Shown: positions 4,315 through 5,918 of the stretch, piece by piece
Layout of the letters: the number at the start of each line of letters is the position of its first letter
Position numbering within the stretch: the stretch's first letter is position 1
DNA from: Deltaproteobacteria bacterium
Lineage (GTDB): Bacteria > Desulfobacterota > BSN033 > UBA1163
Direction: 5' to 3'
Assembly: GCA_016875155.1 (NCBI GenBank)
Contig: VGSD01000159.1
Span: 1-6,832, forward strand
DNA: 6,832 nucleotides
Notes under the pieces: model-generated
Seen by the model: the letters and a program-made list of their open reading frames with translations, nothing else
What the model was told of the DNA's origin: nothing
The model's database searches: none
Translations under genes and position numbers: made by a program

Positions 4315-4572
4315 ATGGAAGAGAAGAAAGTAGGGCAGGTGATCAAGTTTTTTGGGAAGATCGGTGTGGCGGCCATCCGAATCTCTGAAGGCTCCTTGAA
4401 GGTGGGAGATCAGATCCACATCGTCGGCCATACGACCGACATCACTCAGACGGTTGACTCGATGCAGATTGAGAACGCCAATGTCCAGGAGGCGGGACCG
4501 GGTGCGGACATCGGGATCAAGATCAAGGACAAGGTGAGGGAACACGACACCGTCTATAAGGTCGTGCCGTAA
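4315..4572 (+). CDS. Stand-alone EF-Tu domain II-like protein (translation elongation factor-like)
   Basis: This 85-aa protein matches only the second (beta-barrel) domain of translational GTPases: VGQVIKFFGKIGVAAIRI (about 6-23), the turn EGSLKVGDQIHIVG (25-38), TTDITQTVDSMQIENANVQEA (40-60), PGADIGIKIKD (62-72) and REHDTVYKV (75-83). In EF-Tu this barrel contacts the aminoacyl end of tRNA. There is no G domain: no P-loop GxxxxGK[ST] and no NKxD. It is therefore not a GTPase and not a truncated gene, because it has a strong ribosome site, a clean start and a complete barrel. Small proteins of this kind occur in archaea and some bacteria, labelled translation elongation factor-like, with no function known to me. 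Confidence 0.88.
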   Translation: MEEKKVGQVIKFFGKIGVAAIRISEGSLKVGDQIHIVGHTTDITQTVDSMQIENANVQEAGPGADIGIKIKDKVREHDTVYKVVP

Positions 4573-4585
4573 TCCTTGATGAAGC

Positions 4586-4650
4586 AGGTTAAGGTTGAGG
4601 TCAAGGTTTAGTAATTTTTTTTGCTCAACCTCAACCTAAACCTCAGCCTC
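4586..4650. repeat. Imperfect inverted repeat built of AGGTTR-type hexamers
   Basis: The left arm (4586-4610) is a run of near-hexamers (AGGTTA, AGGTTG, AGGTCA, AGGTTT). The right arm (about 4625-4649) carries the complementary series (CAACCT, CAACCT, AAACCT, CAGCCT). About 20 of 25 positions pair, counting one G-T, around a 14-nt loop holding an 8-T run. It fills the spacer between the EF-Tu-like and EndoQ genes. The T-run sits in the loop, so this is not an ordinary intrinsic terminator. It may be a dispersed intergenic repeat or an RNA hairpin that separates the expression of the two genes. Confidence 0.7.
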
Positions 4651-4667: not shown

Positions 4668-5918
4668 ATGCGCTTCATTGCTGATTTTCACCTTCACTCG
4701 AAGTATAGCCGGGCGACAAGCAAGGATATGGAGGTGGAGACGCTTGCTCAATGGGCGAAGAAGAAGGGCATCGTACTGCTCGGGACAGGAGATTTCACCC
4801 ATCCCACCTATTATGCGGAGTTACAATCGAAACTCATCCCGGCCGGGAATGGGCTCTTTCAGCTGAAAAAGGGGGATGAAGGGGTCCGTTTCATTTTGAC
4901 GACCGAGGTGAGCAATATCTATTCCCAAGAAGGCAAGGGCAGGCGAATCCATAATATTATTTTTGCTCCCTCTTTTGAAATAGTGGGAAAGATCAATTCG
5001 AGATTAGGGGGCCTCGGAAAACTCTCATCGGATGGAAGGCCCATCTTCGGTTTTACTGCAAAAGAACTGGTTAAGATGATCCTCGATCTTTCAGAAGATT
5101 GCCTCGTCGTTCCCGCACATGCCTGGACCCCATGGTTTTCGATCTTCGGATCCAATTCGGGATTCGACTCGATGGAGGAATGTTTTGGAGAGATGACCCC
5201 CCATATTTATGCCATTGAGACCGGCCTCTCCTCTGATCCGGAGATGAACTGGAGGTTCTCGGCCCTCGACCGCATCACCCTCATCTCTAATTCTGATGCT
5301 CATTCGCCGAATCGTCTGGGAAGAGAAGCAAATGGCTTCGACTGCGAGCTCAATTATAAAGAGATCGTTGATGCCCTCCGGAAGAAAGACAGGAGAAAAT
5401 TTCTTTTCACCATTGAATTCTTTCCAGAAGAAGGGAAATATCATTACGATGGTCATCGCCAGTGTGGGGTCATTTTCTCTCCATCGGAAACAAAGGCGCA
5501 TCAATACCTTTGTCCAGGATGTCAAAAAAGATTGACTGTTGGAGTGATGCACAGGGTGGAAGAACTCTCCGACCGACCAGAGGGTTTTATCCCGAAGAAT
5601 GCAATTCCTTCGATCCACCTCATTCCCCTTGAAGAGATCATTGCCGAAGGATTAGGGGTGAAGGTGGGGACAAAGGCAGTGGAAACAGAATATGACCGAC
5701 TGCTCGAAAGGGGAGGATCTGAATTTCATATCCTTCTCGATGCACCCCCGGATGAATTAGCTTCATTTGTCACTCCAAGGATTCTGGAAGGCATCATCCG
5801 GATGAGGCAGGGAAAGGTCTCAATCGTTCCAGGCCATGATGGGGTCTATGGAAAGATAGACCTCTTCCCTGAAAGGAGAGAGGAAGGGGAATCCAAGGGG
5901 CAACTGAACCTATTTTGA
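4668..5918 (+). CDS. Endonuclease Q (EndoQ) homolog, PHP-domain DNA repair nuclease
   Basis: This 416-aa protein matches the EndoQ family, enzymes that nick DNA on the 5' side of uracil, hypoxanthine, xanthine or abasic sites. A PHP metal-binding domain fills about 1-235: DFHLHSKYS (D6, H8, H10), TGDFTH (D42, H45), TTEVS (E80), RIHN (H95), PAHAWTP (H151) and SNSDAHS (D210, H212). A zinc-binding module follows (GHRQC, C266; LCPGC, C282 and C285, with H259, H263 or H277 as further ligand candidates), then the family's GVMHRVEELSDRPEG (292-306) and a helical C-terminal region. The length equals that of archaeal EndoQ (about 400-425 aa). The final residues GQLNLF match the bacterial beta-clamp-binding consensus QL[S/D]LF. 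Start 4668 fits, because PHP proteins begin just before DFHLH, but its ribosome site is weak (GGG 6 nt upstream). Activity is inferred, since the metal residues look intact. Confidence 0.88.
   Translation: MRFIADFHLHSKYSRATSKDMEVETLAQWAKKKGIVLLGTGDFTHPTYYAELQSKLIPAGNGLFQLKKGDEGVRFILTTEVSNIYSQEGKGRRIHNIIFAPSFEIVGKINSRLGGLGKLSSDGRPIFGFTAKELVKMILDLSEDCLVVPAHAWTPWFSIFGSNSGFDSMEECFGEMTPHIYAIETGLSSDPEMNWRFSALDRITLISNSDAHSPNRLGREANGFDCELNYKEIVDALRKKDRRKFLFTIEFFPEEGKYHYDGHRQCGVIFSPSETKAHQYLCPGCQKRLTVGVMHRVEELSDRPEGFIPKNAIPSIHLIPLEEIIAEGLGVKVGTKAVETEYDRLLERGGSEFHILLDAPPDELASFVTPRILEGIIRMRQGKVSIVPGHDGVYGKIDLFPERREEGESKGQLNLF

What the first reader, a model, noticed from the sequence alone, without database searches (positions are those of the whole stretch)
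5901..5918. EndoQ homolog ends in QLNLF, a candidate beta-clamp-binding motif
The last five residues of the EndoQ-type nuclease are QLNLF, preceded by a polar, probably flexible stretch (RREEGESKG). Bacterial clamp-binding peptides follow QL[S/D]LF and often sit at a protein's extreme C-terminus, while archaeal repair enzymes use PIP boxes on PCNA. This suggests that a bacterial EndoQ has a clamp tether suited to the bacterial replisome, linking removal of deaminated bases to replication. The motif is seen directly; binding is an inference.
Basis: partly seen in the sequence, partly recalled or inferred. Interest (0 to 1): 0.7.

Follow-up and report, generated by a model that had tools for sequence, protein, structure and literature searches.

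The report
Sliding-clamp tether on bacterial EndoQ
A bacterial DNA-repair enzyme that cuts DNA next to deaminated bases ends in a short tail that looks like a handle for the bacterial replication clamp; such tails are kept in many bacterial relatives while archaeal relatives carry the archaeal version, and in some bacteria the enzyme is fused to a DNA helicase that carries such a handle too.

Summary
ORF 4668-5918 (+, 416 aa) is an EndoQ homolog ending in QLNLF (5901-5915) after a tail predicted to be disordered. QxxLF, the general clamp-binding consensus, lies in the last 20 residues of 120 of 120 listed closest homologs, 55 of 77 EndoQs from nearest species genomes and 69 of 96 standalone EndoQs of the phylum (stricter Q[LM]xLF: 120, 25, 41). 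Homologs found with archaeal queries carry PIP boxes (217 of 227) and hardly ever QxxLF (1 of 227). Two close relatives have a DnaN with an E. coli-like peptide cleft. Binding is inferred, not shown. The idea is in print: Shiraishi et al. 2016 reported clamp-binding consensus sequences at C-termini of bacterial EndoQ homologs. Not found in my literature searches: a clade of 49 sampled EndoQs fused to a UvrD-type helicase, 40 with QxxLF at the helicase end, 26 at the EndoQ boundary, 23 both. Four of four complete UvrD genes beside EndoQ carry it too; ordinary PcrA/UvrD genes rarely do (1 of 30; 1 of 20 paralogs, probably EndoQ-linked). Most likely: clamp-tethered nicking repair of deaminated bases, with an EndoQ-dedicated helicase in some lineages.

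The parts
4668..5918 (+). EndoQ-type nuclease, 416 aa, with stop codon
   Evidence: PfuEndoQ 5zb8 E 5.7e-62; Foldseek 5zb8_A E 2.6e-40, TMq 0.86
4668..5876 (+). folded EndoQ core, residues 1-403, with E80, H95, H151 (Zn ligands E76, H84, H139 of PfuEndoQ) and G186, S188 of the base pocket
   Evidence: mapping; roles in PfuEndoQ from PMC8307549 passages; E80, H95, H151 invariant in the 51 rows of A2
5877..5900 (+). linker, residues 404-411, predicted disordered
   Evidence: pLDDT below 50 at 404-411; variable in close homologs
5901..5915 (+). QLNLF, candidate beta-clamp-binding motif, residues 412-416
   Evidence: conservation
5916..5918 (+). TGA stop directly after the motif

Best explanation
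QLNLF is a beta-clamp (DnaN)-binding motif on a flexible C-terminal leash. EndoQ nicks DNA 5' of deaminated bases; the leash lets it dock in the peptide cleft of a clamp sitting on DNA, which raises its local concentration and places the nick where polymerase can follow, as the PIP box does on PCNA for archaeal EndoQ. Shown here: the motif, its conservation, the bacterial/archaeal switch, a tail predicted disordered, and a canonical cleft in the clamp of two close sequenced relatives. Inferred: binding, stimulation of cleavage, and a role at or behind the fork.
For: QxxLF in the last 20 aa: 120 of 120, 55 of 77, 69 of 96; shuffled-tail expectation 1.0, 0.3, 0.5. Homologs of archaeal queries: 7-residue PIP pattern in 217 of 227, QxxLF in 1 of 227. 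In TkoEndoQ the PIP box is needed for PCNA binding (KD 55 nM) and stimulation (PMC4858679, passages). QxxLF is given as the general clamp-binding consensus (PMC12309361, passages). DnaN of G001 (whose EndoQ, L001, is 88% identical) and of G002: 13 of the 16 E. coli cleft positions checked are identical in both (positions recalled). DnaE of 4 of 5 relatives has QLILF at residue 947-964. The motif recurs at the C-terminus of EndoQ-linked UvrD helicases, 40 of 49 fused and 4 of 4 complete neighbours, against 1 of 30 PcrA.
Against: No binding datum exists for this protein. 27 of 96 standalone EndoQs of the phylum and 22 of 77 nearest-genome EndoQs lack QxxLF; some have no tail at all (L113, L131). 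DnaN was not found in 2 of 12 relatives' genomes (G003, G045), probably missing sequence. In the two Patescibacteria clamps aligned (L293, L294) only 9 and 8 of the 16 cleft positions match E. coli. Position 3 is N/K, not S/D; even a matching QMGLF peptide bound B. subtilis DnaN at only about 78 uM (PMC12309361). No whole genome of the window is held, so its own DnaN was not seen.
Confidence: 0.86

Rival explanations
1. The tail is a C-terminal degron or other tag read through its free carboxylate (a protease or PDZ-type ligand), not a clamp motif.
For: The motif is at the extreme end in 60 of the 69 standalone phylum proteins that have it.
Against: In fusions it lies 1-11 residues before the end in 24 of the 40 with the motif, and 26 of 49 have QxxLF inside the protein at the EndoQ boundary; Q at position 1, away from the carboxylate, is invariant in 112 close homologs.
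Confidence: 0.05
2. The tail packs on EndoQ itself or on an EndoQ-specific partner and is kept for structure.
For: It is kept with EndoQ in many bacteria.
Against: Tail predicted disordered; the linker varies; archaeal-type EndoQ carries a different, PCNA-type motif; the same kind of pentapeptide ends the UvrD part of 40 of 49 fusions.
Confidence: 0.06
3. The tail binds the clamp, but its job is placing EndoQ at repair patches or new strands away from the fork, so the link to replication forks is wrong.
For: Many repair proteins bind clamps (general knowledge); nothing here distinguishes fork from post-replicative clamps.
Against: None from these data.
Confidence: 0.3

Closest known systems
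Archaeal EndoQ with C-terminal PIP box (T. kodakarensis, P. furiosus; PMC4858679, passages)
   Same: Same fold and active-site residues; sliding-clamp peptide at or near the C-terminus
   Different: PIP box for PCNA instead of a QxxLF pentapeptide for DnaN
Bacterial EndoQ homologs with a C-terminal clamp consensus, noted in 2016 for Bacillus and Desulfovibrio type proteins (PMC4858679); activity of B. pumilus EndoQ cited in PMC6202378 (passages)
   Same: Same proposal: beta-clamp consensus at the C-terminus of bacterial EndoQ
   Different: The window is a Thermodesulfobacteriota-type member; this report adds breadth, counts and the helicase link
Clamp-binding motifs of bacterial replication proteins (PolC QLSLF at its C-terminus; DnaE QMGLF internal; PMC12309361, passages)
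   Same: Pentapeptide QxxLF, C-terminal in PolC
   Different: Binding shown for those, not here; N/K at position 3

Membership tests
Endonuclease Q | Catalytic Zn ligands E76, H84, H139 (Pfu numbering) | tested here: met
   E80, H95, H151; invariant in 51 rows
Endonuclease Q | Base-pocket residues G169, S171 | tested here: met
   G186, S188
Endonuclease Q | Whole-length fold like PfuEndoQ | tested here: met
   5zb8_A E 2.6e-40, TMq 0.86
Endonuclease Q | Zinc finger with four cysteines | tested here: inconclusive
   C266, C282, C285 invariant in 51 rows; the first Cys aligns with H263, a possible Zn ligand
Endonuclease Q | Nicks 5' of dU/dI | not testable with these tools
   needs purified protein
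NCBIfam TIGR00375 model | Score over the curated cut-off | tested here: not met
   196.6 of 326.6 bits; 194 of 297 genomes of the phylum match and 0 pass the cut-off
Beta-clamp-binding motif | QxxLF (preferred QL[S/D]LF) | tested here: met
   QLNLF fits QxxLF and QLxLF; position 3 is not S/D
Beta-clamp-binding motif | In a flexible, accessible segment | tested here: met
   404-411 pLDDT below 50, last block mean 51
Beta-clamp-binding motif | Conserved in orthologs | tested here: met
   QxxLF 120 of 120; 55 of 77; 69 of 96. Q[LM]xLF 120 of 120; 25 of 77; 41 of 96
Beta-clamp-binding motif | Clamp with canonical peptide cleft in the host | tested here: inconclusive
   met in close relatives G001 and G002 (13 of 16 positions, recalled); the window's own genome is not held
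Beta-clamp-binding motif | Physical binding to DnaN | not testable with these tools
   needs a binding assay or complex model

The most novel reading that the evidence does not exclude
Bacteria hold a clamp-tethered, helicase-assisted alternative excision repair machine for deaminated bases. EndoQ nicks 5' of the base; a dedicated UvrD-family helicase, first a neighbouring gene with its own QxxLF and then fused to EndoQ, peels off the damaged strand; and both parts hold the clamp, through two motifs in 23 of 49 sampled fusions, so that nicking, strand displacement and resynthesis occur on one clamp.
Probability: 0.5. Interest if true: 0.68.

Novelty: new member of a known kind. Interest (0 to 1): 0.47.

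Why it matters
EndoQ cuts at uracil and hypoxanthine without a glycosylase, and the papers seen here do not settle what follows the nick in bacteria. A conserved clamp handle that takes the bacterial form in bacterial EndoQ and the archaeal form in archaeal EndoQ is strong comparative evidence that EndoQ works on clamps in both domains. The EndoQ-linked UvrD with its own clamp motif names a candidate for the missing helicase step and makes the pathway testable with purified parts.

Tried and rejected
Considered and rejected: chance match (shuffles); the motif as a general feature of UvrD/PcrA helicases (1 of 30 PcrA, the one a QEGLF where its relative L261 has E for Q; 1 of 20 paralogs, the one probably EndoQ-linked). 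My first reading, that fused proteins had moved the motif from the EndoQ boundary to the helicase end, was wrong: it used Q[LM]xLF (4 of 49 at the boundary), while QxxLF is at the boundary in 26 of 49. Counting fusions as independent events was also rejected: the UvrD tree puts all 49 on one side of one branch (support 99), and fused plus EndoQ-linked UvrDs are 54 tips without others (support 72, FastTree). UDG lookup (match in 10 of 14 genomes) led nowhere: EndoQ does not simply replace UDG.

Patterns set after seeing data: QxxLF was adopted after the paper and the tails; my first relaxed pattern was Qxx[LMI][FLY] (66 of 77, 75 of 96, 42 of 49 in the last 15 residues). The PIP pattern was shortened from 8 to 7 residues after seeing the second archaeal set: with 8 residues it is 110 of 120 and 34 of 108.

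Rows dropped or not read: one search dropped 3 of 80 (open) and 4 of 149 (3 open, 1 with a broken frame). Of 150 matches listed, 149 were read (G199 was missed); further matches were not listed. Protein searches list only the best 120 of thousands; one search kept the best 80 of 577. A2 was chosen partly for complete tails, so its invariant Q412 is not independent evidence. The background of 548 ORFs is stop-to-stop and includes ORFs that are not genes, so it is a weak control.

Full report
What is there. The window carries one 416-aa ORF at 4668-5918 (+) that ends in QLNLF followed by TGA. It matches PfuEndoQ over residues 5-402 (E 5.7e-62). Its AF2 model matches 5zb8_A (E 2.6e-40, TMq 0.86, 34% identity). 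The residues that PMC8307549 (passages) gives as Zn ligands and base pocket of PfuEndoQ map to E80, H95, H151, G186 and S188. It stays below the NCBIfam TIGR00375 cut-off (196.6 of 326.6 bits); in the phylum 194 of 297 sampled genomes match that model and 0 pass the cut-off. The protein is 100% identical to a JGI metagenome protein and 99% to one named 'DNA helicase UvrD [Deltaproteobacteria bacterium]'; the nearest species genome (L001, 88%) is titled Thermodesulfobacteriota. No whole genome is held for the window.

The motif is conserved. Of the 120 listed closest homologs (of 7999 with E up to 1e-20), 100 end in QLKLF, 2 in QLNLF (100% and 99% identical to the window), and the others in close variants or with a few extra residues; QxxLF is in the last 20 residues of all 120. 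In the 112 that end in Q[LM]xLF, positions 1, 4 and 5 never vary, while the nine residues before vary; the six sets of motif codons printed there differ. Further out, one search kept the best 80 of 577 loci in a collection of one genome per species; 77 have complete ends and 55 of these hold QxxLF in the last 20 residues, 25 Q[LM]xLF. Titles of loci with QxxLF include Thermodesulfobacteriota, Zixibacteria, Omnitrophota, Brocadiales, Nitrospirae, Methylomirabilota, Neomarinimicrobiota, Armatimonadetes and Patescibacteria. Shuffled tails give 0.3 of 77. Variants such as QIGLF, QKSLF and QTSLF occur. 22 of 77 lack QxxLF; several of these have near misses such as QKTLL.

Bacteria and archaea differ. 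217 of 227 carry Qxx[LIMV]xx[FYWH] in the last 20 residues and 1 carries QxxLF. With the longer 8-residue pattern that I used first, the counts are 110 of 120 and 34 of 108. The 7-residue pattern is in 1 of 120, 0 of 77, 5 of 96 and 0 of 49 of the bacterial sets (shuffles 2.4, 1.2, 1.9, 1.0). The sets were selected by the whole protein, not the tail. In TkoEndoQ the PIP box is needed for PCNA binding (KD 55 nM) and stimulation of cleavage (PMC4858679, passages).

The host side. DnaN was found in 10 of 12 relatives' genomes. In the DnaN of G001 and G002, 13 of 16 E. coli peptide-cleft positions checked are identical (positions recalled, not from a call; alignment); 154, 346 and 360 differ. Two Patescibacteria clamps (L293, L294) match at only 9 and 8 of 16. 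In 4 of 5 close relatives the DnaE polymerase has QLILF at residue 947-964; the fifth (L298) has no Qxx[LM]F. That this is DnaE's clamp motif is by position, recalled. PMC12309361 (passages) gives QL[S/D]LF, or more generally QxxLF, as the clamp-binding consensus, with typical E. coli KD of 100 nM to 1 uM, but about 78 uM for QMGLF on B. subtilis DnaN, so a match does not fix the strength.

The helicase link. In the phylum of G001, 194 of 297 sampled genomes have an EndoQ match. I read 149 of the 150 listed matches (loci): 96 standalone, 49 with a long extension, 4 dropped. Four of the 49 were scanned against Pfam and are UvrD-type helicases (PF00580, PF13361); the others were not scanned, but all 49 extensions align in one UvrD tree. 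QxxLF is in the last 20 residues of 69 of 96 standalone proteins and 40 of 49 fusions (Q[LM]xLF 41 and 36); in fusions it is also at the EndoQ-helicase boundary in 26 of 49, both in 23, neither in 6. Among 548 other stop-to-stop ORFs of 250 aa or more in the loci, four have Q[LM]xLF in the last 15 residues, and all four are UvrD helicases next to a standalone EndoQ. Five of 96 standalone loci show a same-strand UvrD within the few kilobases fetched; the fifth (L116) is cut off by the locus end and its EndoQ ends in QMRLL. Controls: 30 of the 31 best rows, PcrA-type genes of 59 sampled genomes, 1 with QxxLF, at a site where the relative L261 has E for Q (L240 has masked letters near its end, L257 is open); 20 further UvrD paralogs that I picked from the list, 1 with QxxLF (L271). 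L271 scores 600 against the fused-UvrD profile, the others 393-438; it starts at a contig end in a genome, G048, whose EndoQ lies near the end of another contig, so the two may be neighbours (inference). Fused 40 of 49 against 1 of 49 without L271 gives Fisher p 2.9e-17, with L271 1.6e-16; rows are related, so this is not a probability under independence.

History. On a FastTree of EndoQ cores all 49 fusions lie in one group of 57 tips (support 97) with 8 standalone proteins nested in it; the label needs 9 changes, 6 forced by starred branches. All 8 nested proteins lack QxxLF, and one search found no same-strand UvrD in their fetched flanks. Without those, 69 of 88 standalone proteins keep the motif. 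QxxLF itself needs 27 changes on the tree, so it is often lost or regained. On the UvrD tree the fused domains are one side of a branch (99), and fused plus EndoQ-linked UvrDs hold no other rows (72). The plain reading is one EndoQ-linked UvrD lineage, first a neighbour, fused once, with later losses of the helicase; FastTree only.

How it most likely works. EndoQ nicks 5' of a deaminated base (literature). A clamp on the DNA holds EndoQ by the tail, and the same clamp can then serve polymerase for resynthesis (inferred). A 3'-5' helicase loaded at the nick on the continuous strand would move so as to peel off the strand that starts with the damaged base (inferred from UvrD polarity, general knowledge); PMC4357722 (passages) already drew a helicase step after EndoQ and EndoV cuts. 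The window itself shows no UvrD: none of its eight main ORFs matches a helicase model.

Novelty. [quoted passage not shown] its Supplementary Fig. S1 was not seen). So the finding as given is a new, well-supported member of a published proposal. I found no paper on the EndoQ-UvrD fusion in this library: 'TIGR00375' (0 papers); 'endonuclease Q' with 'UvrD' (3 papers; passages of two seen, none on a fusion; the third in the listing only); two of 'PHP domain', 'UvrD', 'EndoQ' (8 papers, listing); three of 'EndoQ', 'helicase', 'fusion', 'bacteria' (12 listed of 9,272). Of the 11 papers with 'EndoQ' and 'clamp' I saw passages of three. Most subscription journals are not in the library, and Fig. 9A of PMC4357722, which draws EndoQ domain structures, was not seen.

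Noticed in passing
L089-L235 (for example L191:1027-4230:-, L209, L163:950-4420:+): EndoQ fused to a UvrD-type helicase in 49 of 145 usable phylum loci, 40 with QxxLF at the C-terminus and 26 at the domain boundary.
   Followed up: yes
L180, L184, L211, L212: Standalone EndoQ next to a same-strand UvrD helicase, both with QxxLF at the end: a likely pre-fusion arrangement.
   Followed up: partly
window 4315-4572 (+): 85-aa protein like EF-Tu domain 2 upstream of EndoQ; a homolog lies in the same locus in 15 of 80 nearest loci, Patescibacteria included. A conserved small neighbour of unknown role.
   Followed up: partly
window 4586-4643: Inverted repeat of 16-nt arms (94%) just upstream of EndoQ, made of AGGTTAAGGTTGAGGT-type repeats.
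   Followed up: no
window 4668-5918: Close homologs are named 'DNA helicase UvrD' in NCBI although this protein matches no helicase model; possibly carried over from fused relatives.
   Followed up: partly
L113, L128, L131, L195: A few standalone EndoQs end right after the core with next to no tail and no motif.
   Followed up: no
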